Shown here: piece by piece, positions 14,562 through 32,179 of the stretch
Layout: the number at the start of each line of letters is the position of its first letter
How positions within the stretch are numbered: position 1 is the first letter of the stretch
Source of the DNA: Pseudovirgaria hyperparasitica
Lineage: Eukaryota > Ascomycota > Dothideomycetes > Acrospermales > Acrospermaceae
Direction: 5' to 3'
Length of the DNA: 32,179 nucleotides
NCBI RefSeq assembly: GCF_010093815.1
Contig: NW_022985584.1
Span: forward strand, 30,145-62,323
The notes under the pieces: model-generated
Database searches by the model: none
What the model was told of the DNA's origin: nothing
The model's input: the letters and a program-made list of their open reading frames with translations, nothing else
Made by a program: the position numbers and the translations under genes

Positions 14562-16691
14562 ATGGCGTCTTCTTGCAGCATCTCTTTATTAGCCCCTTCG
14601 TTTCCTATAAAAATTGTTCCTTACGATCCTTTAGCGCCCAAGCCCAACCCGAAATCCAAGAGCAAAGCAAAGGCGAAAATCAAGACAGCCGAGCACAACC
14701 ATTCCGAAACCGTCTCCTTTAAAGACCGTGGAGAGTGGTTTGATATCGACGATTTCCCAATGCCAGATTCCAATGCATCGCTCTCTCTTAATCCAGGAGT
14801 GCACCCTCGGTTCGAAGTTGCAGTCCCTTCCGGCTCGCCACATCAAGGTATTACTCACCCACTGAACGTTACAAGCCGATAGAACTCCGCTAATATATGG
14901 ACGTAGATGTCGTCGGTGGAGTTGGCGCTGCCTTCTTACCGGACGAGCCAGAGCACTGCCAGTCCGGCCAGGAATCACTTGACGATGGAGGGACAGGCAA
15001 CGCTACTGATGTCACGAAGACGAATTCGGCTACAAACGAGTTGCTTGGACGCAGCCCAGGTAAGTATATGGGTAGATCGTGGTGCCCATTTACTGATTAG
15101 CGATAGAATTTCCATTAAATTTAGAGGGTGACGTAGCCGAAGATCACAGTATAATGCACGTTGAGCCCAGCGACAGAGCGTCAGACTACCAAGCGAACGG
15201 TTACAACGAGGCTGCTGGCACTGAAGGATACCATGCCATACAGTATAGCGATCCCGACACAGTTGGCATGCGCGCTCTCTCCGTAGAGGATATGGAAGTT
15301 GTGCGTCATAGTGAGTAATATCCTAGTAGAATTAAGGAGCCCATTTTGACGTCTTCAAAGAGAGACCACCAGCCGAGGATGAACCACTCTTTAGCGATAT
15401 TGGCGTAACAAGCGGACCGCCAATAATACGCAAACGAACGCACTCTTTATCTACTGATACGATAATCTCCCCAGCAGAAGTGGTGGATCTTACGTCGAAA
15501 CCGGAGCTGGAAGAACGTCGTTTAGCGAAGCGGCGAAGGCTGGCTAAGCAGCGGGTAGAGAACCTCATACTCGATCCTGTATCCATGCCCAAGTCAACGC
15601 CTTTGCCAAGCCCTAGCAGCCAAGTTCCCTCTCCTAGAGCCAGCAACGGTCCTAGACCTGATTTTCCAGAGTGTAACGACAAAGGCGATGGTGCTGAATC
15701 CCCAGGCCTTTACTCCTCAAGACAATCCATCTCTCCTTTTGAAGGAACAGTGAGCGAACAAGATATCAATCCGGATTCAGACAGGCGTGAGAAGAGTAGA
15801 AAAGGCAGACGTAGTGAAGTTGGGGAAAGCCATAGGGACGAACTCAATCAGGTCGACGTGTCCTACGGAGCTTCAGCGACACCTCCTCAGCGACATAACC
15901 CTAGCAATCGTTCGGTCCAGGAGAGACCGCGCGGTCGACCACAGACTCATCTTAAACCACAGAATGGGAGCACAGTCTTTAGGAAGACATCACGACAACT
16001 AACATCACCCCCATCACAACAGCTATCTGGGCCAAGAGCGGATAGCACAGCACGGATCAGTCGGATCGGTCCCCCGCGAACCTTTTCCACAGGAGCAAAG
16101 GCAGCATATGATTCTAGTATCTACCGCGGAACCAGCGACTACGAGTTAATGGATATTGCGCATTACTATTGCGACGTACCGAATGACTCGCCTATTATTA
16201 CAGCAACCGTCTATTGTGCCGACGTAATGTCAGCATTGTATGCAAAGTCATCAGCGCTTAGATGGAACTTGCTTGGTAACAAAGGCGAAGTCATCCGAAC
16301 GATTAAGTTATCATCAGATTCATGGTTGGTAATAGGATACCGGCATGACGATTGCGGTGCGCCAAAATTATGTAGCGGTCGAGGCTCGATGCAGCGAAGC
16401 ACGGATAGGGAGACTGGCCGCCACAGTAATGCCATCAACTATGACGCCGTCCATCCAGAAACATACGGAAACGAGAAGTACGAGGATGAAGATGAAGACG
16501 TGAGCGACAATGGCTATATGCTCTCAGGCAAACGAACACATGTACCGTGGAAAGAGTCGGACGGACAGCGCTTACTGTCGTACAAGGACAAGATGGGCTT
16601 GGACTGGGATGACATAGTTTTTCGTTTCCCAGGTCGGTCGGTGGGCGCCGTAAAACTCCGCTACTACACATTGCACAAGAAGGATTCGTAA
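14562..16691 (+). CDS. Nuclear protein with C-terminal Myb/SANT-like domain, four exons
   Basis: Exons 14562-14847, 14907-15059, 15125-15310 and 15361-16691 join through introns of 59, 65 and 50 bp (all phase 1; donors GTATTA, GTAAGT, GTGAGT) into 651 codons with no internal stop. The N-terminal two-thirds is low-complexity and acidic or Ser/Pro-rich, with a basic KPNPKSKSKAKAKIK patch and an ERRLAKRRRLAKQR nuclear-localisation-like segment. A folded-looking block (YELMDIAHYYCDVPNDSP onward) follows. Residues about 603-651 form a Myb/SANT-type repeat (PWKESDGQRLLSYKDKMGLDWDD, FRFPGRSVGAVKLRYY), with the tryptophans and FPGRS turn seen in fungal Myb-like DNA-binding domains. Probable role: DNA or chromatin binding in the nucleus; target unknown. 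It ends about 0.85 kb before the Gypsy element. Confidence 0.75.
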
Positions 16692-17536
16692 GGCTATTGC
16701 GATGTCCTCGACCTACCACTTCCCACCAAGATCGAACTCTCGCCTTGTTGAGGTTGGAGCATTTACGGGTGAAAAGGAGCGTACGGTGGATGCTAAGCTT
16801 TGCTATCTCGTTTTTACTAGATTATGCATAGACTTGGCGCAAAGAGTTATATAACTCCGTCCCACTTCGTCGCTCGTCTCTCTTCAGGTTATGTCGATTT
16901 TGATTAGTTTCAATAGTCGGGCATCTTCACGGTGCTGCCATCTGCCTCTAGGGATTCCTGCTTGAGATCTGGACTTCTTTCTATAGCCTTTTGTGGCATG
17001 ATGCAAATCCCTGGAAATGTTAGGCAAAGCTCGGCTACCAGAAGTTCTATGAATAACGGAGGTCCCGATTCCAGACCCCTGAGGGTGCCAACGGGGTCCG
17101 AAACCGGCCCCGATGCCTAGTCATCCCCTGTCATCGTTTAGTATCTATAGCTTAGTATGGCAGTTGTTCGCTCCTCTACCAACAGGAACTGTTTCTGTAA
17201 GTCGAGCACTCTCCCCATAATACCGCCGAGGATGCGAACGTGAAAGGTTCTTGTGGAAGCACAACGGCTCTGGAGCCATCACTTGCAACTGCATTGAAAA
17301 AGTTTCTTCTCTGTCAAAGCGCCCGCGCCTGCCATTGCCTGACAGCTGCTTTAAAACGACCTTGCGGCGCCAAGTAATGCGTAGAGCTAAATTTAGTCGA
17401 TGAATCAGACTAATCAGCGCTCGTTTACTGGCGCCGATAGAAGTGTGCTCGCCATCTGGGCCAATAAGGCTTGCGGGAATAACGTCGATACTAATCATCA
17501 GCCTTGGCGTCAAGTGCTGTTAGTCCCTATCCTCCA
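16692..17536. other. Intergenic up to the Gypsy element; one unassigned frame
   Basis: A minus-strand frame at 17513-17145 reads coherently at its start (MISIDVIPASLIGPDGEHTS, RALISLIHRLNLALRI) but matches no family I recognise. It is probably a remnant whose other parts were displaced. Nothing else is supported here. Confidence 0.3.
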
Positions 17537-17668
17537 TGTAGGAATTTAGGTAGATTTTACGTGGTAAACTTGATTGCCCGTTCTATCTAGTCTACTTATC
17601 TACTATATATACCTAGCCTACGCTGAGTAAGATTTGAGTAATGGGGATTACCTAATATGAATCCCACA
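17537..17668 (-). repeat. 3' LTR of the Gypsy element
   Basis: This 132-bp unit is TGTAGGAATTTAGG...AATCCCACA on the plus strand (TGTGGGATTC...TTCCTACA in element sense). It differs from the other LTR only near 17651 (C versus T). The LTRs are unusually short for a 9.2-kb element and contain none of the GTCAA/TTGAC motifs. Confidence 0.93.
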
Positions 17669-17681
17669 TCTTCCCCCTCCT
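17669..17681 (-). promoter_or_regulatory. Gypsy polypurine tract
   Basis: In element sense, AGGAGGGGGAAGA abuts the TGTGGG start of the 3' LTR, the expected position for plus-strand priming. This confirms that the left LTR is the 3' one and that the antisense gene lies inside the element. Confidence 0.8.
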
Positions 17682-17733
17682 GATTATACGAGCTCCTGCG
17701 AGGCGTCAAAGACGATTGACGGAGTCTAACTCA

Positions 17734-17742
17734 TATAATAAA
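17734..17742 (+). promoter_or_regulatory. TATA-like box for the antisense gene
   Basis: TATAATAAA lies about 200 bp upstream of the antisense gene's ATG, between the dyad at 17705 and three TTGAC half-sites at 17885, 17905 and 17931. The position suits a dedicated plus-strand promoter. This is a motif-level call only. Confidence 0.35.
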
Positions 17743-17936
17743 GAGAGGTAGGCGTGTAAAATCTCTTCAACGCTAGGCCATATCCAGTAACACGTCGCGT
17801 AAGGGGGGGTGGTCCGAGCTTGTTTTGGCGCTGAATAGTCACCTTCACCATTGACGTATCCTGCCAACTTCAACCTCACATTACTTGACCATTTCGCCTT
17901 TTTCTTGACCTTTTTCTATACCAAACTCGTTTGACA

Positions 17937-20179
17937 ATGTCTGAAAACACTGCTGAAACTCCTGCGCGCTCAGAAATTACCCCAATTGATGTTGTGATCT
18001 CAGGTATGTGAACTTCAGCTTCACCTTTTCTTTTTAACTTGACCTTCCTACAGCGGACATGGTTATAAATGATGACCTTCGTCATGCCTTTTCGCGAGGT
18101 GGGATAGACGAGAGGTCGCTTGACGACATGATGGCAGAACATGCCCGCGCTCCCGATAGTAGGTCAAGTTCTTTAGTAGTTCTAGCCTAGGCTGACCTAT
18201 ACAGTTCGTGAGAGCTATTTAGAGATGGCTCATGGCTACCTGTATCCACGGGGTCCTTGGGGTTCGCCATTTTTCCGCAATCCAGGCCTAGAAAACGAGG
18301 CTTCGAATCAACTGAATGAAGAGAACAACCAGGCCCTTGGAGCTGAGGTTCCACAGGTTAAGATCTTGGTCCCTGTGATTCCGCAGGAGTTGGCAATCGC
18401 CATTGACGAGACTGTTCCTGAAACAGAAGGTAGTTTCGCTCAGTCCTTCTCTTTTCAAAAACTTTATTAACCTGTGTGGTTCCTATAGGTCAAGTTATAG
18501 ATCACGATTCTGCGCCAACTGATCTTGACGAGCCTTTTGAAACTCCTACCAAGCCTAACAGGTTCGAGAATCTTTCAGATGACTCTGACGATGTCTTTGA
18601 TCCTGAAAAGGAAGGAGCTTTGAGCTCTGGGCTATCAGACCTTGACAGCGATGCGATAATGGAAATTGACGAGCTTGATGAAGCAGTTGCTCTCAAGGCA
18701 GGCAAGAAAGGTGAATCTCTAAGCCTTAATTGGGTTTTCAATTTCCTAATATCATCATAGGCCTTCGTCCTAAGGCACCTAGGACTCCTAAGAAGGTCCG
18801 CAAGGCCGTGAGGACTCTGTCAAAGTTGTTTGACAGCCCTAAAACTCGCTCCATGACTTCCTCATTGGCCTTAACAGGTCTCGGAAGTCCTAGCAAGATC
18901 GTGAAGAAGGCTCCTATCAAGCGTAAGGGGTCTGCAGCTTCTCGCAAGGTCAGCGCGGCATCAGAGACTGCGGCAACTGAACTTGACAGCTATGGCGGTG
19001 CCGAGATCATGGTGAAAGGCCGGTCAGGCCTCAGTGTTCATCCTGACTACTACTTCTTTTCGGGGAAATCGGCAGAGTTCGCGCAGTGGTTGGCCCGTCG
19101 GCGTAGGTCTTCTTCCTGTTAATTGCCTTTGACGGTCAGCTAACTTGACCTAGGGGAGATGTTCTCGGATCCTCCCATCTCAGTGCCGTTCTGCCAGGAA
19201 TTCGTTGATGGCTTGATCAAGGCGTATACTGGCGGTCAACATGCCTCGATTCCGAAGGATCTGCTTCCGTTTTGTATGACGGATAAGTTTGATGACTGCT
19301 GCTATCCCCAGGATATCGCAGCAACAGTAGGACAGATCTTTCGGGATCCCGAGAAACGACTGGATGGGAAGTATCCGTATACCATTCCTGCCGTCCTAGG
19401 CATGATGGCTCGTGGCGCGTTCTGGCACTTCGGTGATAGCGCCTGTGGATCCTGTTCTGCCGGCAAAGGTGTCTTCAAGGAGTGTGTGCAGCTTTTTCCC
19501 AATGGGTTCCTACTGTTTGAAGGTACTTGTTTGAATTGTTTCCACCAAGGAAATGGGAAATTCTGCAGCATGTCACGTCGTAAGTCACTCCCTTATGTTG
19601 TCAAAGGCCTTTGACGGGGCTAATTGTGTATCCACAGTATACCGGGGCGAGCGTAACGTCATTGAGAAGCTTCAGCGTGCCGAACAGTCTTCTTTTGTGG
19701 AAAAGACCAAGTCCACTGGCAGGTATTCGGCTGCCCAGCTTCGTCAAAAGAAGTTGTCAGGTCTCAAGGAGACCAGGTCAAACTCTGCGGCTGGTCCTTC
19801 GCTCGTGAGTCAGGTTTTCTATCTCGTGTAATCTCTAGCTAATTAAAAGGTCACAGCCATGATAGAATGGATGTATCACGGCGGTCCAGAGGTTCTCGTT
19901 CCTGGCTATGATGATATCATGCCTCCCGACCCGAGTATCATCCCCACTCGTCCTATACAGGACATAGATGACGAAGGTCTTCCGCTTGACGAGGCTGTTG
20001 AGGGTTGGTTTGCTCTTCCGACAAACGCGTTTGGCGAGGCTGGTCGTACGCCTCAAGGGTTGCCATGCCGGTTCCTGATCGAGGATGGCATGCCCAAGGA
20101 GAGTAAGAAGGTCCTGGTGAAGTTCGCGAAGAATATGAACTTCAGTCGTCGTAAATCCGCTTTGAGGGTCCAGGGCTAG
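17937..20179 (+). CDS. Antisense cargo gene: eight-exon protein with DUF3716-like Cys module
   Basis: Exons 17937-18003, 18054-18158, 18205-18429, 18489-18710, 18761-19102, 19154-19579, 19638-19804 and 19850-20179 join into 628 codons without a stop. Introns are 45-59 bp; the first six are phase 1 and the last phase 0. Residues about 130-205 are acidic (LSDDSDDVFDPEKE, SDLDSDAIMEIDELDE). About 207-280 are basic (RPKAPRTPKKVRKAVRTL, KKAPIKRKGSAASRK). About 418-458 hold C-x2-C-x9-C-x14-C-x2-C-x8-C (CGSCSAGKGVF, GTCLNCFHQGNGKFCS), closely resembling fungal DUF3716. Acidic, basic and zinc-ligand-like segments suggest a nuclear nucleic-acid binder; function is not known. It is convergent with pol (270 bp between stops), and its start is 268 bp inside the 3' LTR. 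Proposed, not shown: it binds the GTCAA-N6-TTGAC dyads, several of which lie in and before it. Confidence 0.8.
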
Positions 20180-20448
20180 GTCGACGACGTCTCTTTTGTG
20201 TTGATACCCCTTCTCCTTGAGCGTCAAAGGGCGTTGACGGCTTTTCTTTTGTGTCTGGTTGGGTTGCGGTTCTTAGGTAGCGATTTTAGACTTGAATAGT
20301 ATCATCACAAGTCCACATCTTCTTTCTTTGACCTCCTGGTGATTCCTATGGCTCGTCAACCTTCGTTGACGGCCATGTGTATGAGTAATGAGTGAATGGG
20401 AGATCAATAATGGTGTGTACATAGGAGATATTCAAGGAAAGACTGAGG

Positions 20449-23400
20449 TTAGTTGTAATCTAAGCTTTCTTGTAACAACTTAGAAGGTAATATCTTTTTC
20501 CTTAGGGAGTACCTCTCTCCCTCTGATCTGTCAACTCGTCTTGACGCGCTGGCTACAGCCGCTTGGGTTTCTCTATTGCGTTCATCCGTATAGGATCGCT
20601 TTCTTTTCCGCATATGAGGTTTGCTTTCTACAAGGTCCCTTATAGGGACGTCCGAGTCTATTAGAGGTTGTTCGGTCACTTCGTCAACCTCTTTTGGCAC
20701 TTCTTCAGTGTCTGTATCTATATCCATACTCGTAGGATTCTCATTTTCAGTTTGGACATTCTTGTCTAAGTCCATTCGTATATCATCAAACTCGTCTCCT
20801 GAGCTTGTTTCTTCAGGCAATTCATCCTGTATCGGTTCTGCAGTGGCTTCCTCTGCCATGTCAATCTCGTTTGACGGGTCATCTGCTGTATTCTCGTTTA
20901 TCGTTTGGGCTTCCTCTGCCCTTGGAGCATCGTAGCTTCTTTCGATGTTGACTATCGGCGGTTGCATCGCTCCGCTGTTCTCACCTTGTTCTTCCGGTGT
21001 GTCTCTTGGTTCGTCAAAGACGATTGGCACTGGTGCGGCCGACGTAGCTGTAGTAGCTTTTTGTTTACGTCGATTTTTCGCATCGGTAAGCCTGATTTGT
21101 CGCGCGATATTTGCGTCTATCGAGCTCTCCCCTACCAAGAACGAACGTACGCCCTCGTACGTCAACTCTCGTTGACTCCGTAGCTGTTGCAGCCGGTTCC
21201 ACTCCTTTTTAGGAAGGGAGGATAGAGTCGTCCAGTGTAGGGTCGGTTTTTCTTTCTCTAAAACCTTCTCGATGTCTGGTGAGTGAGGTGCCACTTGGTT
21301 CCGGATTTCCTCGGACATCTGTGAGTCAATTTCCTGTCTAGTCCAGAAGTCCTCTAGCTTGTCAATGCCCCGGGCTGTTATTAATCTATTGCCGTGTACA
21401 AGGTGCCGTAAGATACGCCCGTTCGGTGTTTCGAGGGCATATGTTCCCAAAGGATGTTGCATGTGAACCTTGTATGGACCTAAGTAGTTCGTTTTGAACT
21501 TCGTTTTCTGCTCGTTCTTTAGCAAAACGATTTGACCGACAGGTAGTCGCGCCTGATCTTCAGGTTTGAGTCGAGTCGGGTCTATGAGGTCTCGGCGGGC
21601 GGCTTCCACAAGCAGCTCACTAAGCGCTAGTGTTCTGGCGTGTTGGACTTTCTTGACTCGCTTGATGAGTTCGTCAAAGGACATTGACTCATCCTTTTCC
21701 CCAGGAATGTTCCCTGGTAAGTTGGGGTGTTGTCCATACACCAGATAATATGGACTAACTCCCATACTTCTATGACGGCGAATCCTTGTGGCGAAAACGG
21801 CGGCTGGTAGGTACGTGTCCCAGTTTGTCACCAGCTCGCCTATACACATACGGGTAAGTATGCCTCCTAATGTTCCATTGAGGCGCTCGACTTTCCCGTT
21901 TGTGCGAGGGTGATAAGGGGTTGTGAGCTTGTGTTCTGTCTTGAGGATGCGTAGCAATGCGCCAACGACTCTTGACAGAAACTGTTGACCATTGTCTGAG
22001 GTTAGTGCGGCGGGAGGTCCGAAGTCTATGAAGATCTTCTCATAAATGAACCTTGCGACGGACTCCGCAGTCGCCTCAGGGACTGCCTGTGCAATAGGCC
22101 ATCCCGTTGTGTAGTCAATTGCTGTTATCACCCAGCTATTGCCGTTGTGTGTGGTGGGGAGTACGCCTATAAAGTCGATACCCCATTCTTCAAAGGGTGC
22201 TCGGCGTGCGACCCTATGAAACTGTCTCTCATGTTGTGGATTTGGTGGCACTCGTTGCGCCAATTGACATTGACGGCAGTTGCGAGCGACCACTTCCACG
22301 TCTTTCTTCATTCTAAACCACCAGCCTTGTTTTTCTAGGGCTCCTAGTAGTCCGGGCCACATGAAGTGACCGAATTGACGGTGTATTGTTTCTACCAGCG
22401 AAGTACGGTATTGTTCGGGGATGTACGGCGCTGAGTTTTCCGACAAATCTTCTTGACTATCATCAAAATCCCATAGCTTGTGTCGTAGTTTACCTTCGTG
22501 GTCCAGGCGTAGCCGGGACAGGATTTCGGGGGAGACTTTTAGCACATGCTCTGTCGGTTCCGCTCCTTTAAGGAACTCAATGATTTGGGCGACGAGAGTG
22601 TGTTCGTCAACCTTAGTTGACGGCATTGCGGAGATCTCGCCTTGAAAGTCCGGCCTCCTACTGATGGCGTCAGGTACCACTGCCCTGGATCCTGGGCGAT
22701 ATTTTATGTCTAGATCGAAGCTTCCGAACTCATCAATCCATCTACCTACACGGCCTCCTTGTTCCTTGGCAGTCTTGAGGAACTGTAGGCTATGGTGGTC
22801 GGTGAGGATCGTGGTCTTCTTCGTTCCTAGCAAGTATCCCCAAGTGCGTAGGGCGTGTTTGATGGCAAGAAGTTCTTTTTCGTGCACTGGGTAGTTGAGC
22901 TCGGCGCCGTTGAGCTTCCTCCCGTCAAACGCGATTGGCTGATTCTGCTTGTCGGCGTCTTCCTGGCAGATCACCATACCGATCGCGTAGTTGCTCGCAT
23001 CCGTTTCGATGCAGAAGGGCTTTGTTTCATCTGGCTGAGCCAGGACTGGCTCGGAACATAGGGCATTCTTAAGCGTTTTGAAGGCAAACGCTGTTGACAG
23101 TGTCCATCTAATGGGCCTATACTTCTGCTTTCGAATGAGCGGGTCTGCTTCTTTAAGAAGGTCTGTCAAAGGTGCCGCGATGCTTGTAAATCCCCTAATG
23201 TACCTTCGGTAGTAGTTCGCTAGGCCCAAGAACTGTCGAACTTCGCTAACGTTCGTAGGTTCCGGCCATTCGCGGATGGCCTGAATCTTATCCTTCATAG
23301 GACGGAGTTGTCCTCGCGAGACGTGGTGTCCGCAGAAGTCAACTTCGGCCTGGCCGAAGCTACACTTCTCCGGATTGGCGAGCAGGCGATATTCGCGGAG

Positions 23401-24774
23401 TAAGGCAAGTACTTTTGACAGCACTCTTGCGTGTTCCTCCATGGTTTCGGAAAAGATAATGATATCGTCCAAGTATACAACCACGGATTTGTGTAATAGA
23501 GGTTGAAGGACTCTGTTCATCATCTTTTGGAATGTGGCAGGTGCGTTTGACAGACCGAACGGCATTACCTTGAACTCGTATTTGCCGTAGATCGTGTTGA
23601 AGGCGGTTTTCGGGACGTCTTCATTGTCAACACGTACTTGCCAGAATCCTGAGGTCAAATCCATCTTGGTAAACACGGTTGACTGGCCGAAGGCACGTAG
23701 GCACTCATCAATGCGTGGGAGAGGTGTCGTATCTTTACGCGTGAGTGTGTTGAGTGCCCTATAATCGATACACATTCGCCATTTGCCTCCGGGCTTGGGC
23801 ACGAAAAGTACTGGGCTGCCCCAGGCACTTCCTGATTCTTGAATCAGGCCTCGCTTGATTAGCTCCTGTATCTGTCTCTGTTGTTCTGCGATCTGTTCTA
23901 AGGAGAGACGATAGGCTGCGTTGTTGATAGGTCGGCCATCTCCTGTGTCTATTTTGTGGTCCCATTGTCTTGAAGGAGGTAGCCCTTCGGGCAGGTCTTC
24001 CTTGAAAACGTCCTTATACTTCGTCAAAACGGGTTGCAGTATTGGGTCAGGTGCATGCGGTACAGGAGGAGTGTCCTTTCTAACGAACCACATTACACCC
24101 TGTTCACAGCCGTTCGGGTATTGTTTCCGTGCTTGACTAGCAGTGAGGACGTTTAGCACTTGTTCTCCTTGTAAGTCAATGTCGATTGACGCAGGAATCC
24201 CTTTTAGAAGGTACTCCTTGGTTCGTCCTCGGGCTGCTGGCTTCTTAATTACTAGGGAATGAGACCTCCATGAGATATCGGGGTCCCATTCGTAGAGCCA
24301 TTCGTATCCTAGAATCAGATCGTAGCCTTTGAGGTCGAGCACTCTCGCGGAGACTTCGCAAGTGAAGCTTTCCATGCGTAGGGGGATCTTCACAACTTCT
24401 CGACTTGTCATGAGGGGTCCTGACGGAAGTTTGACACGTATTGCGGGAGCAGGTTGTGGCACCAGCTTCAGACGCCTGGCAACCTTCGTTGACATATACG
24501 TTCTATCAGCCCCACAGTCGATGAGTACTGAAACCTTCTGAGGGTGGACTTCTCCTGCGTAAGCTTTGAGTTCTAGCAACTGTCTGCCGATGGAGTTTAG
24601 TTGACAGAGGCGGTCGTCGACGGCGTGCGTCAACTCCTCTTGACACTGGCGAGCACTCTCTAGCGATTCGCAAAGCGCGTTAATGTGCTCGTAGTCCCAT
24701 GTGTTTACCTCCTTTTCATCGGAATTGTCAGTGCAGAAGCTCTCTTCGTCGCTCGTGGTGTGTTCTGTGTCCAC
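20449..24774 (-). CDS. pol: Gypsy pol: protease, reverse transcriptase, RNase H, integrase
   Basis: A 1441-codon frame. Protease has LIDCGAD at about residue 84 (catalytic Asp 86, with Cys in place of the usual Thr/Ser). RT spans KWRMCIDYRALN (about 331), FTKMDLTSGFWQ, and VVYLDDIII with YLDD at 434-437. RNase H has CIETDASNYAIG (about 588), EKELLAI and LTDHHSL. Integrase has an HHCC zinc-binding region (HRQFGHFMWP ... CRQCQLAQ), then WGIDFIG, LTSDNGQQF and PRTNGKVERLNGTL for the D,D-E core. The C-terminal ~270 residues are acidic, ending in a basic tail (HMRKRKRSYTDER). The frame has no ATG at its start (GTG at 24774) and overlaps the gag end in the -1 frame, so it is probably made as Gag-Pol by frameshifting. 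Seven exact dyads lie within it without breaking the frame. Confidence 0.93.
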   Translation of the reverse strand: MDTEHTTSDEESFCTDNSDEKEVNTWDYEHINALCESLESARQCQEELTHAVDDRLCQLNSIGRQLLELKAYAGEVHPQKVSVLIDCGADRTYMSTKVARRLKLVPQPAPAIRVKLPSGPLMTSREVVKIPLRMESFTCEVSARVLDLKGYDLILGYEWLYEWDPDISWRSHSLVIKKPAARGRTKEYLLKGIPASIDIDLQGEQVLNVLTASQARKQYPNGCEQGVMWFVRKDTPPVPHAPDPILQPVLTKYKDVFKEDLPEGLPPSRQWDHKIDTGDGRPINNAAYRLSLEQIAEQQRQIQELIKRGLIQESGSAWGSPVLFVPKPGGKWRMCIDYRALNTLTRKDTTPLPRIDECLRAFGQSTVFTKMDLTSGFWQVRVDNEDVPKTAFNTIYGKYEFKVMPFGLSNAPATFQKMMNRVLQPLLHKSVVVYLDDIIIFSETMEEHARVLSKVLALLREYRLLANPEKCSFGQAEVDFCGHHVSRGQLRPMKDKIQAIREWPEPTNVSEVRQFLGLANYYRRYIRGFTSIAAPLTDLLKEADPLIRKQKYRPIRWTLSTAFAFKTLKNALCSEPVLAQPDETKPFCIETDASNYAIGMVICQEDADKQNQPIAFDGRKLNGAELNYPVHEKELLAIKHALRTWGYLLGTKKTTILTDHHSLQFLKTAKEQGGRVGRWIDEFGSFDLDIKYRPGSRAVVPDAISRRPDFQGEISAMPSTKVDEHTLVAQIIEFLKGAEPTEHVLKVSPEILSRLRLDHEGKLRHKLWDFDDSQEDLSENSAPYIPEQYRTSLVETIHRQFGHFMWPGLLGALEKQGWWFRMKKDVEVVARNCRQCQLAQRVPPNPQHERQFHRVARRAPFEEWGIDFIGVLPTTHNGNSWVITAIDYTTGWPIAQAVPEATAESVARFIYEKIFIDFGPPAALTSDNGQQFLSRVVGALLRILKTEHKLTTPYHPRTNGKVERLNGTLGGILTRMCIGELVTNWDTYLPAAVFATRIRRHRSMGVSPYYLVYGQHPNLPGNIPGEKDESMSFDELIKRVKKVQHARTLALSELLVEAARRDLIDPTRLKPEDQARLPVGQIVLLKNEQKTKFKTNYLGPYKVHMQHPLGTYALETPNGRILRHLVHGNRLITARGIDKLEDFWTRQEIDSQMSEEIRNQVAPHSPDIEKVLEKEKPTLHWTTLSSLPKKEWNRLQQLRSQRELTYEGVRSFLVGESSIDANIARQIRLTDAKNRRKQKATTATSAAPVPIVFDEPRDTPEEQGENSGAMQPPIVNIERSYDAPRAEEAQTINENTADDPSNEIDMAEEATAEPIQDELPEETSSGDEFDDIRMDLDKNVQTENENPTSMDIDTDTEEVPKEVDEVTEQPLIDSDVPIRDLVESKPHMRKRKRSYTDERNRETQAAVASASRRVDRSEGERYSLRKKILPSKLLQESLDYN

Positions 24775-26051
24775 TACGGGCGACTGGCTTTTGGGGGCTC
24801 TTCGTCAAAGACGCTTGCCGTGTCTCCCTCTGCGGTGACGTGGGCCAGTTTGCTTGGAGTCGGATTTTCGGGGCAGAATCTTGAGATGTGTCCTGTTTTC
24901 TTGCAGATAAAGCATTCTCGAGTCTCGTTAAGCGTTCTTGACGAATTTCCTTGGTATCTACCACGGCCTCGGCCTCGACTCCAGCCTCTGCCGCGGCCTC
25001 GGCTGTTCCACTGGCGCTTTACGAAGGCGTGGAGCTTGCCTTCGTCTCCAGAGAAGTCGCCTAGGTCATCATCGCGGGTGTATAAATCCTCAGGAGGCTC
25101 GAACTCTTCGGGTTCTTCGTCCTCGTCTGGATTATACATGGCATTAAGGCGATGATTAGCTTCCCGTCTGTGGTATTCGCTCTTGGAGTGGGTGTATAGG
25201 GCTTCTTCTAGCCTTTTTACCCATGGGCACCAGTCCCCTAGCATCTGAGGAGGAAAGGGCTGCTTTTCGATTTCTCGTTGAACCTCTGATTTGAGGGCAC
25301 TTAGTATCCTGCGTTGTATCTCGTATTCTGTAGGCATGGGTCGTAGTAGTCGAGCTTTCTCGACAATGACGTCGATGAGCCTCGAGGCAGACCCATAACG
25401 ATGTTGACTTAGGTTCTCCCATTCCTTTCGGCGTTGTTCTGGGCGATTGGTCGAGATGTACGTCTTGCGTATGACGTCTAGGAAGTCTCCTAGAGTTTGA
25501 GGACTACCCGGGCTATTACGGCCGCGTGCCTCCATGAGGCTACGCCAAAGGGTACGGACATGTTTTGAGGTATATGTCCCGCAGATTTGTAGTTTCTCAA
25601 AATCAGGTATAGCCTCTTGGCGTTCCACTGACTCTACGGTATTAATCCATTCCTGGATAGATAGGCACCATTCCTCGCAGGCGTCGTCCCTGATTTCTCC
25701 TGAGTATACTTCGGGGGCTCGAAGAGGGATGCGGCCTCTGCGTGGGGGCGCAACCGTTCCTGAGCGGCCGGGGTTATTGAGGAGGAGGTTGTCAAAGTCT
25801 CTTGCCAGTTCCTCCCGGGTGACGTGATCGTTCCTCACCTGTGACTCGAGTCGGTTGGCACATATGTTGATAAGTGCCACTGTACGAGCGTCTCCAGTGA
25901 GGTCTCTCGTGGCCGGATCGGCATCGAAGAGGGCGTTAAGCACGTCAACGGTTATTGACGGTGCGTTACGAGCGCGTCCTGTGCTCTGGGGAGCGGTTGC
26001 TCCATCCATGGGGACGTCGCCGTCACGATCAGGGTTCTGGGGAAGAGACAT
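24774..26051 (-). CDS. gag: Gypsy gag with CCHC zinc knuckle
   Basis: ATG at 26051, 425 aa, TAG at 24776-24774. The N-terminus is low-complexity (MSLPQNPDRDGDVPMDG), followed by a helical capsid-like region (EWCLSIQEWINTVESVER, WENLSQHRYGSASRLIDV). Then come an acidic stretch, an RG-rich stretch (RGRGRGWSRGRGRGR), and a retroviral-type zinc knuckle C-x2-C-x4-H-x4-C (CFICKKTGHISRFC, about 380-393). It forms the virus-like particle and binds element RNA in this family. The N-terminus and one dyad (25944) are shared with the truncated copy at 32151. Confidence 0.9.
   Translation of the reverse strand: MSLPQNPDRDGDVPMDGATAPQSTGRARNAPSITVDVLNALFDADPATRDLTGDARTVALINICANRLESQVRNDHVTREELARDFDNLLLNNPGRSGTVAPPRRGRIPLRAPEVYSGEIRDDACEEWCLSIQEWINTVESVERQEAIPDFEKLQICGTYTSKHVRTLWRSLMEARGRNSPGSPQTLGDFLDVIRKTYISTNRPEQRRKEWENLSQHRYGSASRLIDVIVEKARLLRPMPTEYEIQRRILSALKSEVQREIEKQPFPPQMLGDWCPWVKRLEEALYTHSKSEYHRREANHRLNAMYNPDEDEEPEEFEPPEDLYTRDDDLGDFSGDEGKLHAFVKRQWNSRGRGRGWSRGRGRGRYQGNSSRTLNETRECFICKKTGHISRFCPENPTPSKLAHVTAEGDTASVFDEEPPKASRP
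24789..24795 (-). promoter_or_regulatory. Candidate -1 frameshift heptamer CCCAAAA
   Basis: In the gag frame the site reads C CCA AAA, matching the X XXY YYZ slippery pattern. It lies four codons upstream of the gag TAG. Slipping back one base enters the pol frame, which is open from there. No downstream pseudoknot was worked out. Confidence 0.5.
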
Positions 26052-26250
26052 TTTGGTACAACTTGTTAGAGACAGGGGAATTCTGAGGTGGTGATCATCT
26101 TCCGAGTTGGAATTTGGTCGTCAACTTATGTTGACGAGTGGTTGGGAGGTACATTGCGGGTACAGGGAGCGTCAATGAAAAAAAATTCGTTTCCTTAGTC
26201 TTTGCTCGTTTTGTGATATGTCACTACCCGTTGTGACTATTGAACTGGTC

Positions 26251-26396
26251 GTCAAAGTTTGTTGCCGTAATTTGATTCTCTGAATAGTTGATGTTTCGGC
26301 AGGGATATCCCATCGTAGGCATGACTCGTTCTTATGGCGCGCCTGTATCCGCTGAGTTGTTGGAATTGTCGTCAAACGTTGTTGCCGTAATTTGTT
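26251..26396. repeat. Leader direct repeat around degenerate dyads
   Basis: Two copies of GTCGTCAAA followed by GTTGCCGTAATTTG start near 26248 and 26368, 120 bp apart, in the untranslated leader. Each contains a dyad with TTGCC in place of TTGAC. The segment between them is not duplicated. Confidence 0.6.
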
Positions 26397-26525
26397 TTTC
26401 CGGGACTATGGCATGTCCCTTCGTGGTAGTGTTTTTCCTGTTGGACTATAGGTTCCTTTGCCGTTGTCTTCGGCGGAGGTGTTTAATGTCGTGGGTGTCA
26501 ATTGCGTTTGACGAGTTGCCTCGTG

Positions 26526-26570
26526 TAAGGGGAGATATAGCTACCCCTTAGGAGGGGTCGCCGAGGCGAC
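26526..26570 (-). other. Tandem stem-loops in the retrotransposon leader
   Basis: TAAGGGG (26526-26532) pairs with CCCCTTA (26544-26550). GTCGCC (26557-26562) pairs with GGCGAC (26565-26570), with partly complementary TAGGAGG and CCTCCCTA outside. They lie 40-85 nt downstream of the 5' LTR in element sense, where dimerisation or packaging structures are usually found. Function inferred from position only. Confidence 0.4.
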
Positions 26571-26595
26571 GGCCTCCCTAGGAGGACAAAAACCA

Positions 26596-26609
26596 GCTTT
26601 CAGCTACCA
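26596..26609 (-). promoter_or_regulatory. Probable primer-binding site
   Basis: In element sense TGGTAGCTGAAAGC begins 2 nt after the 5' LTR. The leading TGG pairs with a tRNA 3' CCA, as expected for minus-strand priming. The tRNA could not be identified. Confidence 0.5.
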
Positions 26610-26611
26610 GA

Positions 26612-26743
26612 TGTAGGAATTTAGGTAGATTTTACGTGGTAAACTTGATTGCCCGTTCTATCTAGTCTACTTATCTACTATATATACCTAGCCTACGCTG
26701 AGTAAGATTTGAGTAATGGGGATTATCTAATATGAATCCCACA
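26612..26743 (-). repeat. 5' LTR of the Gypsy element
   Basis: A 132-bp direct copy of the LTR at 17537-17668, with one difference. In element sense it precedes the primer-binding site and gag, so it is the 5' LTR. A TATATATA stretch lies in its middle. Confidence 0.93.
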
Positions 26744-27318
26744 TGAGGTAGCAGAGATGGTCACATGACAGAGCACTTTGGACGTCGATTTAGGCTAGTG
26801 GGCCCTGCGCTGAATCTACTGCAGGGAAAGTGAGACCGTTGATCGCCTACTGTAGCCAAGACGCAGGGGCTAGATTTGCGCAGCCCGCAGATTCTCCGAT
26901 AAGGCTTGCGCTGTCTAAAACGGTATATTAGACCCTGAGAAGCTCAACTCAAGAAATTCGTAGGCTCTGGCTTTGAATTAGGATTTGAGCACCGCGAAGA
27001 CAGATCTTGGACTGCAGCTCTCGGGATAGACTGTTCATACGCCAATCTACTGTGCATTGTAATTCTAAGTACACTGCTTAGATATAGTGGATGTTATCGG
27101 TCTCCCAAAGCAAGCCGTCGGTAGCAACGATTCCTTAATTCAGAGATTATAGGCTACGCAGAAGGTTCACGCAGATAAGATTAAGCGTGGGTATAGCTTA
27201 GACCGTTAGCTATCTATCCCGAGAGTATCATGCTCAGGCTGACGTTGTGGAATTTATTATCTGGTGTTGAAATTCTGCATCTCGGTACACAGGGAATCTC
27301 GCGACGTAGGGAGGGACG
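26744..27318. other. No recognisable gene
   Basis: This is the right flank of the Gypsy insertion. I see no open frame of note, no RNA gene and no repeat. It does not visibly continue the left flank before 17536. Confidence 0.4.
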
Positions 27319-28157
27319 TTAAACTTCATCCTGCCTTCTAGATATGTGTTTTGACCCCGCACTTGAACTTGTCCTCCATTGAAGAATTGGGAAGACTAGT
27401 GTTGCTGGCAGTATAGATAGTGCTCGAAGAACCGTACGAATGGAGCTCGCATTACTTGAGAACCAAATAAGGATCAAGAGCGAGTCTCTCCGGTGCTGAC
27501 TGAGCATCAGTAGGGATGCGAGGACAACAATGACGTTTGCATAGACAAGTTCCAGCAGTGTGCCAGAAATGATACACATCATACCCATCTCTGCTGTCAC
27601 AGTGCAGATGAAGGAAAATGCACCCTCCGAAGGCATTTCTACCTTGCTAAGAACCATAAGCAGAGTTTTATATGGTCCACAGACGTACTAACTAGGCACA
27701 TAGCGTGATAAGGACTAAAAGCCGGCTGCTTGCGACAGCATATGGTAGGATACGAGGAATGGATAGCTGTCCTTTGTTGCCGTTGGTGGTAAGAGACTAT
27801 GCCTATGTTAGCTTTGTCGCCACTTGTCTGCGCATAGAGCTTTACCTGTCTCAAGGTACTGACGGTGAGGTGTGCTAGGCTCAGGTACCATATCATCTGA
27901 GAGTACTCAGGCTCATCAAGTATAAGATAGCTAAAAAGTGTGCTGAGCCCGCTGCAGGTCATGCAGATAGCTGCAAGTAACATATTGAGCATTGGCTGCA
28001 CGATTTTCAGCTGACTGGTCGCTGCGTGTCGGAATCGAAGGATGAGAGCCATTCCACACTGGATAAGCAGTAAGAGAAATAGAGAAGAATATACCATGCA
28101 ATCGAACACAGAACATAGAAAGAGCGGGCCGAACAGTATTGAGACATCTTGCGACAT
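27319..28157 (-). pseudogene. Multi-pass membrane protein remnant
   Basis: From ATG 28157 the frame encodes at least three hydrophobic spans (FGPLFLCSVFDCMVYSS-LFLLLLIQCGMALIL, MLNMLLAAICMTCSGLSTLF, MIWYLSLAHLTVSTL). A second frame (27657-27319) adds at least two more (MCIISGTLLELVYANVIVVL, RALSILPATLVFPIL). The parts overlap out of frame around 27650, so either an intron I could not place or a frameshift separates them. The topology suggests a fungal integral membrane or receptor-like protein, but no family motif was recognised. Confidence 0.4.
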
Positions 28158-28302
28158 GTTAGAACATCCTACAGGAAGTTGTCGGTGTTGCTTCTATCAA
28201 TCTTATAAGGACGAGTAACGTTGGGCTGTACATATCTGTACTATTATTAGAGCGGGCGTGGATTGCGCAGAGCGGGGCGGGGAGCGACGCAGTACCTTAC
28301 AG

Positions 28303-28810
28303 GCCGATATTAGGACCGCAGTCGATATATTTAGACGTCCCCTTGGACTAAAAAGCGAACGCTGCCCACTTCGAGCCGGGTAACAGATGCAAGATCCACG
28401 CGTATGCCAAACTTGGTAGCGACGTAGCGCTGTTCGTGATGAACCCAACCACTAAAGAGCTCTATAGCTACCGCTCGCGGAGAGACTTTCCTCCGGCAGA
28501 CTTAGAGACCTTGGTAAGTCGTGTTTGAGCGTTCTTAATCTAATAGAGTCGACTAATGCAACATATCTAGCTTCTGCGCCCAACTGCAAGAAATGTCCTC
28601 CTGGAAGACCTGGAGACAGCCAGCGCCGGCACCAAGCTCGCGAGAGCCAGCTTTGCAACCCCACCTCGACTTAGCGACGAGAAGGTTATGATTAGGAGGA
28701 AGAGTCGGGCTATAGCAAAAATGGCCAAGTCGTTTTTGCCGGAGCCGCCACGCCTTAGGTCAAAACCTACTTCTCGACCTACGTCGCTCACACTTGGTGG
28801 ATTTTTGTAG
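28303..28810 (+). pseudogene. MADS-box-like short protein, 5' end broken
   Basis: Exon to 28513, a 57-bp intron (28514-28570: GTAAGT, branch GACTAAT, CTAG), then exon 28571-28810 ending TTTTTG-TAG. The first exon reads KIHAYAKLGSDVALFVMNP and then TTKELYSYRSRRDFPPADLE. This resembles the second half of a MADS (SRF-type) domain, with its DVAL hydrophobic strand and following K-LY-Y, as in short MADS-like proteins of ascomycetes. The basic start (FRRPLGLK) is in a different frame. The shift falls at a run of five A near 28350, so one inserted or deleted base breaks the gene, or the run is a sequencing error. No ATG is evident. The C-terminus is basic (RRKSRAIAKMAKSFL). Confidence 0.4.
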
Positions 28811-29220
28811 AGCTATCCTCGTTGTGGCAAATGTACGTCCAGGGTGTGCTATTCATTCAATGTGCCAAGACCGGTTCATTACGCGGATCGTATGTCACGC
28901 AAAAGCTCTTGCAGAATCACCCGCGAGGCCAAGTGGCCCAGCGAAAACGCCAGGACAATAGGCTCGCTCTCTTCCATCAAGAGACAGACCTCTGAAGAAC
29001 ACAGTCATTATGACGTGTGTCCAAGTATGGAGGCTCCTGAGCATACGATGAGGAATAGTATCATGTATCGACAAGTCACACGTGTATAACTCGGCCTCTA
29101 ATGTCAAGCTTCAAAAGAATGTGTGTTAGCTCGAACAGGATACCTGTGTGAGCAAAATGTACGCTGTCTACACCATACTGATGCTACCCGTTCTTATCGC
29201 AGCGTGAAAGAGTGCAAGGC

Positions 29221-29640
29221 GGTCAGAGTGACCTCACTTTTGAAGCTCTCCTCATATTCGATAGTGTCTGCCCATGCCGTGTTCTTCGTCTTGATCTGCC
29301 ACAGCCTTGCGATTGATCCGGGTGTCTACCTTGAGAGCTCTGTTGCATTGGCGGGCGATGCTCGCAGTCTCAAATGTTGGTGGCTCTAGGAGCGATTCGC
29401 AGCTGTCGTGGTCGGCAGGCCTGTGACGACCAAATATGTGGGACCGAAGACTCTCGAAACAACTTCTCCACTTACTCCCACGACGAGAAGGAGTTGTTGG
29501 GGAGATCCAGACGACAGGACAAATGCTTGCGGACTGGTATCGAGAAGAGTGTGGTTATATGTTCAACCTACTTCAAAGCTCAGCACGACGATTGCTTAGA
29601 TACAATCGCGCAATCTAAAAGTAGTATCATTCCAACCGAA
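29221..29640 (+). repeat. Right arm of the ~400-bp inverted duplication
   Basis: The plus strand here matches the minus strand at 3340-3740 at roughly 90% identity. The shared block ends just after TCTAAAAGTAGTAT on both sides. The arms are 25.5 kb apart and enclose the Copia, FTA2, Myb and Gypsy loci. Confidence 0.75.
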
Positions 29641-30062
29641 AGTGAGGATTCGACATAGACCGACCAGGCTGGATAGAGACTGCTTCGTTGGCTATTTTTA
29701 GTAAACTAAGACTACGCCTCGGTAAGATCATGGCTCAGTAAGGGCATGGCTCAGTAAGGGCATGGCTCAGTAAGGGCATGGCTCAGCATATGAGTTTCGA
29801 TACTTTTAAGGTAAATTTTCTATGCTACAAGTTTAATTCCGTAAGGGATTATCTTTTAGTCAATCTTTTAGTAATATTTGGCAGTCTAATAAAAAGTTGA
29901 GTCCATTGGCATGGAAAGAATGCTCACTTCCCATGATCATGCCTGCTAACAACGATCTGACACCACATGTATTCTTTTCTCGCCTTGGTTAGTCCCCTGT
30001 CTGGTTAAGCTGCTTCTCCATTTTAGCACTTACTAAAGGCAGGCAGTAACATGGATTTTTAT
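29641..30062. other. A/T-rich spacer with a tandem repeat
   Basis: No gene is seen. Apart from the 16-bp tandem array the stretch is A/T-rich with short repeats of CTTTTAG and TAAGG. Confidence 0.4.
29730..29787. repeat. 16-bp tandem repeat ATGGCTCAGTAAGGGC, 3.6 copies
   Basis: Three exact copies plus a partial fourth (ATGGCTCAGC). The reverse complement contains TACTGAGCCAT, which also occurs near 1617-1627, with CTGAGCCGT variants from 1549. Both clusters therefore lie outside the inverted-duplication arms in opposite orientation. Confidence 0.85.
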
Positions 30063-30897: not shown

Positions 30898-32179
30898 GTT
30901 CGTCAACCTTAGTTGACGGCATTGCGGAGATCTCGCCTTGAAAGTCTGGCTTCCTACTGATCGCGTTAGGTACTACTGCCTTGGATACTCGGCCTCCTTG
31001 TCCTTGGCGGTCTTAAGGAACTGTAGGCTGTGGTGATCGGTGAGGATCGTGGTCTTCTTCGTTACTAGCAAGTATCCCCAAGTTCGTAGGGCGTGTTTGA
31101 TAGCAAGAAGTTCTTTTTCGTGTACTGGGTAGTTGAGCTCGGCGCCATTGAGATTTCTCCCGTCAAACGCGATTGGCTGGTTCTGCTTGTCGGCATCTTC
31201 TTGGCAGATCACCATGCCGATCGCGTAGTTGCTTGCGTCCGTTTCAATGCAGAAGGGTTTCGTTTCATCTGGCTGAGCAAGGACTGGCTCGGAACATAGG
31301 GCATTCTTAAGGGTTTTGAAGGCAAACGCTGTTGACAGCGTCCATCTGATGGGCCTGTACTTCTGCTTTCGGATGAGCGGGTCTGCTTCTTTGAGAAGGT
31401 CTGTCAAAGGTGCTGCGATGCTTGTAAATCCCCTAATGTACCTTCGGTAGTAGTTTGCTAGGCCAAGGAACTGTCGAACTTCGCTAACGTTCGTGGGTTC
31501 CGGCCATTCACGGATAGCCTGAAACTTATCTTTCATAGGACGAAGTTGTCCTTGCGAGACGTGGTGTCCGCAGAAGTCAACTTCAGCCTGGCCGAAGCTA
31601 AATTTCTCCGGATTGGCAAGCAAACGATATTCGCGGAGTAAGACAAGTACTTTTGACAGCACTCTCACATGTTCTTCCATGGTTTCGGAAAAGATAATGA
31701 TATCGTCCAAGTACACAACCACGGATTTGTGTAATAGAGGTTGAAGGACTCTGTTCATCATCTTTTGGAATGTGGCAGGTGCGCTTGACAGACCGAACGG
31801 CATTACCTTAAACTCGTATTTGCCGTAGACCGTGTTGAAAGCGGTTTTCGGGACGTCTTCATTGTTAATACGTACTTGCCAGAATCCTGAGGTTAAGTCC
31901 ATCTTGGTAAACACTGTTGACTGGCCGAAGGCACGTAGGGAAGACTCGAGTCGGTTGGCACATATGTTAATAAGTGCCATCGTACGAGCGTCTCCAGTGA
32001 GGTCTCTCGTGGCCGGATCAGCACTGAGAAGTGCGGTAAGCACGTCAACATTCATTGACGGAGCGTTACGGGCGCGTCCCGTACTTTGGGGAGCGGTTGC
32101 TCCGTCCATAGGGACGTCGCCGTCGCGATCGGGGTTCTGGGGAAGAGACATCTCGGTATAACTTGTTAGGGAAAGGGGA
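30898..32179 (-). mobile_element. Truncated, internally deleted Gypsy copy of the same family
   Basis: High identity to the full element in three blocks: 22604 to about 22690 (end of the RNase H region), 22761-23711 (RT and RNase H), and 25848 past 26051 (gag start and leader). The deletions remove about 70 bp, then all of late gag through protease. The copy begins within 3 bp of a CGTCAA dyad and is still aligned to the gag leader about 30 bases from the window end, so its 5' LTR, if present, is outside the window. Integrase, antisense gene and 3' LTR are absent. Confidence 0.88.
30973..32151 (-). pseudogene. In-frame Gag-RT fusion frame of the truncated Gypsy copy
   Basis: One 392-codon frame joins about 70 N-terminal Gag residues (MSLPQNPDRDGDVPMDG to ICANRLES) to RT from LRAFGQSTVFTKMDL onward. 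It includes VVYLDDIII and most of RNase H, and ends after LTDHHSLQFLKTAK in about ten frame-shifted residues. The deletion junction keeps the frame. The RT N-terminal fingers, protease, zinc knuckle and integrase are missing, so it cannot support transposition by itself. Confidence 0.85.

What the first reader, a model, noticed from the sequence alone, without database searches (positions are those of the whole stretch)
17705..26512. A dispersed palindromic motif, GTCAA-N6-TTGAC, saturates one retrotransposon
I count 15 exact copies in 9.2 kb. Ten fixed bases predict about 0.01 in random sequence of this length. Spacer length is always 6 while spacer sequence varies. Copies lie in both coding strands, an intron, the leader and intergenic DNA, and in different codon phases (for example SxxxD when read as N-TCA-A, SQ/CQ-x-E-L-T in another phase). 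Protein-level selection therefore cannot explain them. I found no copy elsewhere in the window except in the truncated relative. Half-site centres are 11 bp apart, one helical turn, which suits a symmetric dimer.
Basis: seen in the sequence. Interest (0 to 1): 0.94.

Follow-up and report, generated by a model that had tools for sequence, protein, structure and literature searches.

The report
Evenly spaced palindrome array in retrotransposon
A fungal jumping gene carries the same short mirror-image DNA signal about once every 150 letters, right through its genes, and a quite different jumping gene in the same genome that has a related zinc-protein gene carries its own, different, evenly spaced signal, which suggests that each makes a protein that recognises and coats its own DNA.

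Summary
Confirmed and understated. All 15 copies of GTCAA-N6-TTGAC are there, with no other spacer length. The real motif is GNCAA-N6-TTGNC: 33 sites in a 9.2-kb intact Ty3/Gypsy element. In a diverged RIP-mutated copy the core arms show 0 of 248 non-RIP changes, against 699 of 7574 elsewhere; third codon positions 0 of 68 against 274 of 1800. Arm changes are not compensated, so it is not an RNA hairpin. The element has an antisense 8-exon gene (627 aa) with a DUF3716 zinc domain. A second DUF3716 locus (contig C58) lies in an unrelated terminal-inverted-repeat DNA transposon that carries 20 exact and 6 near copies of another palindrome, TCGTACGA, also evenly spaced and confined to the element. 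Eighteen other Gypsy loci show no such array. Best explanation: DUF3716 proteins are element-encoded DNA-binding proteins, each recognising an array written through its own element, probably to control its chromatin (VANC-like anti-silencing). Binding and purpose are inferred. Relatives in other fungi were out of reach.

The parts
17536..17669 (-). 3' LTR (element sense strand is minus), 134 bp, ATGT...ACAT ends; purine tract just inside (read by eye)
   Evidence: 133 of 134 identical to the other LTR; sequence
26611..26744 (-). 5' LTR; TGG-type primer-binding sequence just inside (read by eye)
   Evidence: no target-site duplication seen
24774..26051 (-). gag, 425 aa; zinc knuckle below the Pfam cut-off
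20449..24774 (-). pol, 1441 aa: protease, RT, RNase H, integrase; uninterrupted
17937..20179 (+). antisense accessory gene, 8 exons, 627 aa, DUF3716 zinc domain
   Evidence: splice model, seven introns of 45-59 bp with GT-AG ends; spliced protein has only DUF3716 in Pfam, 5.4e-7, residues 416-460
19438..19572 (+). DUF3716 (PF12511) domain, exon 6
17563..17578 (.). degraded LTR site GGTAAACTTGATTGCC; other family LTRs read GGCAAAATTGATTGAC (L038, L039) or GTCAATCAAATTTGCC (L015)
26638..26653 (.). same degraded site in the 5' LTR
   Evidence: LTR alignment
17705..17720 (.). exact site
18392..18407 (.). relaxed site, accessory exon 3
18514..18529 (.). relaxed site, accessory exon 4
18819..18834 (.). 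exact site, accessory exon 5
18972..18987 (.). relaxed site, accessory exon 5
19600..19615 (.). exact site, accessory intron 6
19743..19758 (.). relaxed site, accessory exon 7
20020..20035 (.). relaxed site, accessory exon 8
20223..20238 (.). exact site between accessory gene and pol ends
20355..20370 (.). exact site between accessory gene and pol ends
20530..20545 (.). exact site, pol
20683..20698 (.). relaxed site, pol
20860..20875 (.). exact site, pol
21013..21028 (.). relaxed site, pol
21161..21176 (.). exact site, pol
21673..21688 (.). exact site, pol
21961..21976 (.). relaxed site, pol
22259..22274 (.). relaxed site, pol
22442..22457 (.). relaxed site, pol
22606..22621 (.). exact site, pol
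22924..22939 (.). relaxed site, pol
23083..23098 (.). relaxed site, pol
23404..23419 (.). relaxed site, pol
24175..24190 (.). exact site, pol
24478..24493 (.). relaxed site, pol
24629..24644 (.). exact site, pol
24804..24819 (.). relaxed site, gag
25791..25806 (.). relaxed site, gag
25944..25959 (.). exact site, gag; the copy at 32044 has the same arms and a different spacer
26120..26135 (.). exact site, 5' leader
26251..26266 (.). relaxed site, 5' leader
26371..26386 (.). relaxed site, 5' leader; with 26251 in a duplicated 41-nt stretch
26497..26512 (.). exact site, 5' leader
30898..32179 (-). truncated relative (gag start joined to RT), running to the contig end, 2 exact and 3 relaxed sites

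Best explanation
The motif is an 18-bp palindromic site, roughly (C/T)GNCAA-N6-TTGNC(G/A), read as double-stranded DNA by a dimeric sequence-specific protein. The element keeps about one site per 150 bp from LTR to LTR, through gag, pol, introns and leader. The binder is most likely the product of the element's own antisense gene, a DUF3716 zinc protein: in the same genome an unrelated DNA transposon with a DUF3716 match carries a different evenly spaced palindrome. Each such element would thus be written through with the target of its own protein. Spacing near one nucleosome repeat points to chromatin of the integrated copy as the place of action; the likely benefit is to keep the element open against silencing, as VANC proteins do for Arabidopsis transposons. 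Shown here: site identity, density, even spacing, DNA-level constraint, family restriction, lack of RNA pairing, and the second domain-array pairing. Inferred: that the protein binds, that nucleosomes set the spacing, and that the effect is anti-silencing.
For: Even spacing: 33 sites, minimum interval 120 bp, 19 of 32 at 120-185 bp (random mean 4.4, maximum 14 in 200000; the minimum gap reached in 0 of 200000). Against a null that already forbids gaps under 120: P 1.4e-4 for the 120-185 bin, P 4.4e-4 for the empty 205-277 bin, periodic power reached in 8 of 20000. Constraint: core arms 0 of 248, spacers 16 of 186, rest 699 of 7574 non-RIP changes in the C13 copy; 0 of 236 in the related C14 copy; third codon positions 0 of 68 against 274 of 1800, non-coding 0 of 48 against 129 of 1046. 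Second system: of 3 DUF3716 loci found in the genome, the one on C58 lies between terminal inverted repeats (96% over 106 bp) with 20 exact and 6 one-mismatch TCGTACGA inside and 0 of either in the other 5 kb of L042; 200 shuffles give mean 0.05; interval variation 0.32 of the mean against 0.95 at random, 0 of 200000 as even; genome-wide the 8-mer is not enriched (561, reversed control 697). A C39 derivative, 85-90% identical in pieces, keeps 4 exact sites. Control: in 18 other Gypsy loci no non-AT palindrome with 5-base arms exceeds 3 copies, or 4 with 4-base arms. Layout matches plant Retand elements with antisense predicted DNA-binding proteins (passages of PMC11963269). Nucleosome repeat of S. 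pombe 154 bp (passage of PMC4081033); median short interval here 153 bp.
Against: No binding data. The accessory protein has no homolog in the protein collection and no usable fold (mean pLDDT 38.7). The DUF3716 frame on C58 holds one stop. The third DUF3716 locus (C2) has no palindrome array, only a weaker excess of a non-palindromic hexamer, found after the fact. Pairing of domain and array thus rests on two elements. The permuted-interval null reaches the periodic power in 264 of 4000: spacing is locally even, a rigid lattice is not proved; 19 of 26 empty rungs of the fitted ladder hold no site with score 7.5. C58 intervals average 180 bp (median 165), not 150. Nucleosome dinucleotide signals are not robust and the host's nucleosome repeat was not measured. 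The 18 control loci are mostly RIP-mutated, which could hide an array. RIP-mutated copies show that the array does not protect from RIP.
Confidence: 0.55

Rival explanations
1. The element's DUF3716 protein binds the array, but for another end: self-limitation of copy number, repression, or activation of its own transcription rather than anti-silencing.
For: The same sequence evidence; 4 sites lie in the leader and 3 in gag.
Against: Sites run evenly through pol and the antisense gene, far from any likely promoter.
Confidence: 0.2
2. The sites are bound by a host protein (transcription factor, insulator protein, remodeller) that the element recruits, as gypsy of Drosophila recruits Su(Hw) (recalled).
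For: A host factor would also give DNA-level constraint. In Magnaporthe the remodeller Isw2 was reported to bind palindromic motifs in retrotransposons (passages of PMC11481914).
Against: Outside the family the exact site is rare (38 in 35 Mb); in the four isolated sites looked at it stands alone. It would not explain a second, different palindrome array beside a DUF3716 domain.
Confidence: 0.12
3. The array acts on cDNA or transposition intermediates, not chromatin: an element protein coats the DNA at intervals, for instance against auto-integration.
For: Sites ignore genes and run from LTR to LTR.
Against: The second array is in a terminal-inverted-repeat element, which should have no cDNA.
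Confidence: 0.08
4. RNA signal: a 5-bp hairpin with a 6-nt loop, bound by Gag or a packaging factor.
For: The inverted repeat could pair in RNA.
Against: Of 18 sites changed at position 2, 0 keep a Watson-Crick pair (3 could form G-U on one strand); no Rfam match.
Confidence: 0.02
5. By-product of codon usage, tandem duplication or RIP.
For: The arms contain CpA, the RIP target; two leader sites lie in a 41-nt duplication.
Against: Codon shuffles; within the element no other internal repeat of 30 nt or more was found; RIP copies read GTTAA..TTAAC, that is, RIP destroys sites.
Confidence: 0.01

Closest known systems
VANC anti-silencing proteins and their motifs in VANDAL transposons of Arabidopsis (PMC5735166, passages read)
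   Same: Short family-specific motif at high density in one transposon family; related VANC proteins have different motifs; an element-encoded protein is known to bind and reverse silencing.
   Different: VANC motifs lie mainly in non-coding DNA, in one orientation, and spread as tandem repeats; here the site is a palindrome, runs through coding exons, is evenly spaced, and is not in tandem repeats. Different protein domain found; LTR retrotransposon and TIR element; fungus. Binding not shown here.
Retand Gypsy elements of plants with antisense ORFs between pol and 3' LTR (TRP28 domain) (PMC11963269, passages read)
   Same: Same gene layout; predicted DNA-binding domain; regulatory role proposed there.
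   Different: Different domain, fungus, multi-exon gene; the passages read mention tandem repeats, not a dispersed array.
TnpA of maize En/Spm with repeated subterminal sites (recalled)
   Same: Element protein, many short sites, effect on methylation and transcription.
   Different: Sites near the ends, not through the coding region.
CENP-B boxes in alpha-satellite (recalled)
   Same: A short site about once per nucleosome-sized unit.
   Different: There the whole unit repeats in tandem; here only the site recurs.

Membership tests
Ty3/Gypsy LTR retrotransposon | Paired LTRs | tested here: met
   133 of 134 identical
Ty3/Gypsy LTR retrotransposon | pol order protease-RT-RNase H-integrase | tested here: met
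   Pfam positions 74-160, 325-485, 582-683, 859-956
Ty3/Gypsy LTR retrotransposon | Target-site duplication | tested here: not met
   Flanks do not match (by eye); may be lost by rearrangement
VANC-type anti-silencing system | Family-specific motif at high density | tested here: met
VANC-type anti-silencing system | Motifs mainly non-coding, spread by tandem repeats | tested here: not met
   25 of 33 sites in coding exons; no tandem array of sites
VANC-type anti-silencing system | Related proteins paired with different motifs in different elements | tested here: inconclusive
   DUF3716 with GNCAA-N6-TTGNC here and with TCGTACGA on C58; third locus unclear
VANC-type anti-silencing system | Element-encoded protein binds the motif and reverses silencing | not testable with these tools
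   candidate gene only
VANC-type anti-silencing system | Accessory protein is a VANC homolog | tested here: inconclusive
   Pfam gives only DUF3716 for the spliced protein; no direct comparison with VANC made
WRKY W-box sites (TTGAC[C/T], recalled) | C or T after TTGAC | tested here: not met
   Base after TTGNC in 66 half-sites: G 40, A 19, T 7, C 0 (complement of position 0)
RNA hairpin element | Compensatory changes in the stem | tested here: not met
   0 of 18

The most novel reading that the evidence does not exclude
DUF3716 proteins are a family of self-recognition proteins acquired by unrelated classes of fungal transposons. Each element has written an evenly spaced, nucleosome-gauge array of its own protein's palindrome through its whole length, protein-coding exons included, so that the protein coats every copy and sets its chromatin state in trans; protein and array change specificity together, and RIP erases the array.
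Probability: 0.4. Interest if true: 0.96.

Novelty: new variant of a known kind. Interest (0 to 1): 0.92.

Why it matters
If right, mobile elements carry a second, DNA-level code laid over their protein code, spaced at nucleosome scale, that lets one small zinc protein recognise self along the full length of an element. It would extend element-encoded anti-silencing from plant DNA transposons to fungal retrotransposons and TIR elements, give DUF3716 a function, and provide protein-site pairs of different specificity for testing how proteins and arrays coevolve and for setting chromatin state at will.

Tried and rejected
RNA hairpin: no compensation, no Rfam hit. Codon bias. Tandem duplication: in the element one 41-nt leader duplication besides the LTRs. 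Rigid 158-bp lattice: 0 of 4000 uniform placements reach the power, but 264 of 4000 permuted-interval runs do, so not claimed. Helical phasing of intervals: p about 0.01 for the 33 sites, 0.001 with ten added sites; not claimed. For that joined set of 43 I added 17563 and 21361 by hand and left out 17920 and 21974, which score 7.5 but do not fit. Nucleosome dinucleotide pattern: positive at 10.3 bp (P 0.0025), but a scan gave peaks at 9.5 and 12.5, not at 10; dropped. W-box: flanking base does not fit. Protein homologs: whole protein, 7999 candidates scored, 0 at E 0.01; DUF3716 region, 32 candidates, 0 at E 1. Viral contigs: 4 pattern matches, 0 relatives of pol. PDB: 0 matches for exon 6. 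Fold of exon 6: mean pLDDT 38.7, not used. High TAG counts in L019, L022, L026 are ordinary RIP, CpA being nearly exhausted. Literature: ten searches; no listed title or abstract start describes such an array apart from VANC; others (DUF3716) found 0 papers; lists were cut to 20 of 167 (29), 10 of 3594 (52), 8 of 102 (56), 8 of 13 (63), 10 of 169 (70) and 12 of 41 (77). Passages only were read of PMC5735166, PMC11481914, PMC4938642 (gave no repeat length), PMC4081033 and PMC11963269.
Full report
OBSERVATION. GTCAA-N6-TTGAC occurs 17 times in the window, 15 of them at 17705-26512 and 2 in a truncated relative; shuffles give a mean of 0.04. No copy has another spacer from 0 to 15. A further 19 sites in the element have one mismatch, 17 of them only at half-site position 2. 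The relaxed motif GNCAA-N6-TTGNC has 33 copies in the element and 0 in window 1-17535 plus 26745-30890. The base before GNCAA is C 40, T 19, A 7, G 0 in 66 half-sites.

THE ELEMENT. It spans 17536-26744, has 134-bp LTRs, 133 identical, and uninterrupted gag and pol on the minus strand. Between pol and the 3' LTR lies a gene on the opposite strand, 17937-20179, with 8 exons and 627 aa by my splice model; its only Pfam match is DUF3716, 5.4e-7. No target-site duplication is seen. RIP index TA/AT is 0.89, so this copy is not RIP-mutated. Of the 11 other pol matches of 59% identity or more in the 35.0-Mb genome, 9 carry many TAG and TAA (41-45 TAG and 33-47 TAA in the three full-length ones) and 2 are short and free of stops. 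DNA of the antisense gene is matched in six other long places, which lie beside the three full-length and three interrupted RIP copies.

NOT CODING, NOT CHANCE. In 2000 synonymous-codon shuffles per gene none reaches the relaxed counts (pol 16, gag 3, accessory 6); the single exact sites of gag and accessory gene are reached by 10 and 37. Genome-wide there are 59 exact sites, against 12 for the reversed control; 38 lie outside the window and the C26 copy. I looked at four of these 38 (L001-L004): the exact site stands alone.

EVEN SPACING. The 32 intervals have a minimum of 120 bp; 19 lie at 120-185 bp (random mean 4.4, maximum 14 of 200000 draws). If gaps under 120 bp are forbidden in the null, the excess at 120-185 (P 1.4e-4), the empty bin 205-277 (P 4.4e-4) and the periodicity (8 of 20000) remain. 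Permuting the observed intervals reaches the same power in 264 of 4000: local evenness is shown, a rigid ruler is not. By a weighted score there are 43 sites of 7.5 or more where about 1 is expected; 7 of the 26 empty rungs of the fitted 158-bp ladder hold such a degraded site (18655, 19118, 21521, 22114, 23536, 23668, 24023), 19 do not. Others do not fit: 21974 overlaps the site at 21961 and 17920 lies off the ladder. The LTR site at 17563 lies 142 bp from the next. One long gap covers the exon with DUF3716 (19118-19600).

CONSTRAINT. In the RIP-mutated C13 copy, setting aside C-to-T and G-to-A, core arm positions changed 0 of 248, spacers 16 of 186, 12-bp flanks 71 of 732, rest 699 of 7574; C14 copy 0 of 236, 14 of 174, 61 of 697, 654 of 7416; C26 derivative 0 of 72, 6 of 54, 15 of 184, 79 of 1641 (arms against rest P 0.08 there). 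The C13 and C14 copies are not independent. Third codon positions 0 of 68 against 274 of 1800; non-coding 0 of 48 against 129 of 1046; 31 of 33 sites could be aligned and all 31 are explicable by RIP. Sites were picked in the window element, which hides losses on its own branch; such losses, or gains elsewhere, exist, as the RIP copies match at 18655, 21361 and 24927 where this element is degraded. The RIP-tolerant pattern is loose: in RIP copies it also gives matches 10-33 bp from others that do not fit the spacing. It gives 38 matches in 7.3 kb of L006 and of L007, against 4 in 80 kb of 18 other Gypsy loci.

DERIVATIVE. A deletion derivative on C26 (L015), 98.7% identical to the window's truncated relative over 2516 bp, has 12 sites of score 7.5 or more at intervals 140, 127, 134, 176, 138, 132, 132, 321, 149, 260, 188; the 138 crosses a deletion junction; the last site lies outside the part that aligns to the element.

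A SECOND SYSTEM. The genome holds three places with a DUF3716 match. The one on C58 (frame with one stop) lies in an element bounded by inverted repeats of about 106 bp, 96% identical (L042 2675-2778 and 7327-7432), with 20 exact and 6 one-mismatch copies of TCGTACGA inside and 0 of either elsewhere in L042 (shuffles mean 0.05). Of the exact sites, the first lies just inside the left repeat and the last just before the right one. With near copies the intervals average 180 bp, median 165, minimum 83; their relative spread is 0.32 against 0.95 for random placement (0 of 200000 as even). The 8-mer is not enriched genome-wide (561 against 697 for its reversed control). A shorter relative on C39, 85-90% identical in pieces, keeps 4 exact sites. 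Flanks of the C58 element lie side by side on C55, sharing 7 bp, which looks like an empty site. No transposase was identified in three short ORFs scanned. The third DUF3716 place, on C2 beside a helicase-like ORF, has no palindrome array; it shows an excess of YACGAC (32 in L043, partly a local simple repeat, and 23 in L035), a word picked after the fact, so only suggestive. As a control, in 18 other Gypsy loci the best non-AT palindrome reaches 3 copies with 5-base arms and 4 with 4-base arms; most are RIP-mutated, which weakens this control; the unmutated L033 gives 1 and 2.

MECHANISM. Base identity is kept and pairing is not (0 of 18), so the site is read as DNA; half-sites 11 bp apart fit a dimer. 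Two unrelated elements pair a DUF3716 match with an evenly spaced array of different palindromes, so the DUF3716 protein is the natural binder. Spacing near 150-180 bp suggests one site per nucleosome (core about 147 bp, S. pombe repeat 154 bp; passages of PMC4081033). Antisense genes in this place occur in plant Retand elements and are predicted to bind DNA (passages of PMC11963269). The gene evolves fast (non-RIP change by codon position 0.113, 0.090, 0.162 against 0.038, 0.017, 0.135 in pol; exons 2-4 at 0.18-0.20, introns 0.106), though the comparison copy has 26 gapped positions there, not all in threes. Binding and anti-silencing are inference.

LIMITS. The collections within reach gave no relatives of the proteins. 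No structure was obtained. Nucleosome sequence signals were not found.

VERDICT. A real, strongly conserved, evenly spaced DNA-site array through a whole retrotransposon, with an independent counterpart in a DNA transposon that shares the DUF3716 domain. It may work like a VANC-type self-recognition system; membership in that kind is not established.

Noticed in passing
L042 2675-7432 (G000:C58): TIR DNA transposon with DUF3716 match and 20 exact TCGTACGA palindromes; C58:10059-13411 is an inverted 100% copy of part of it, perhaps an assembly palindrome.
   Followed up: partly
G000:C55:9499-9609: Looks like an empty site of the C58 element: both flanks side by side, sharing 7 bp.
   Followed up: no
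L035 and L043 (G000:C2:2006001-2012602): Third DUF3716 ORF near a helicase-like ORF; hexamer YACGAC in excess.
   Followed up: partly
window 27975-32179 and G000:C26 252856-257130: Long duplicated stretch, 91-99% identical, holding the truncated element and flanking DNA; the window ends at the contig end.
   Followed up: partly
window 3338-3736 and L041:96-494: 399-bp stretch 94% identical to a piece of the C26 region; probably another repeat.
   Followed up: no
window 4450-5514: ORF resembling Copia reverse transcriptase/RNase H by eye; no Pfam hit.
   Followed up: no
window 29707-29786: Short tandem repeat with a 16-bp unit.
   Followed up: no
window 18054-18710: Exons 2-4 of the antisense gene diverge faster than its introns: possible positive selection.
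   Followed up: partly
L038, L039 LTRs: LTRs of heavily RIP-mutated copies keep an unmutated-looking site, so LTRs may escape RIP.
   Followed up: no
window 15480-16691: Host-like ORF with a weak Myb-like domain, below the Pfam cut-off, beside the element.
   Followed up: no
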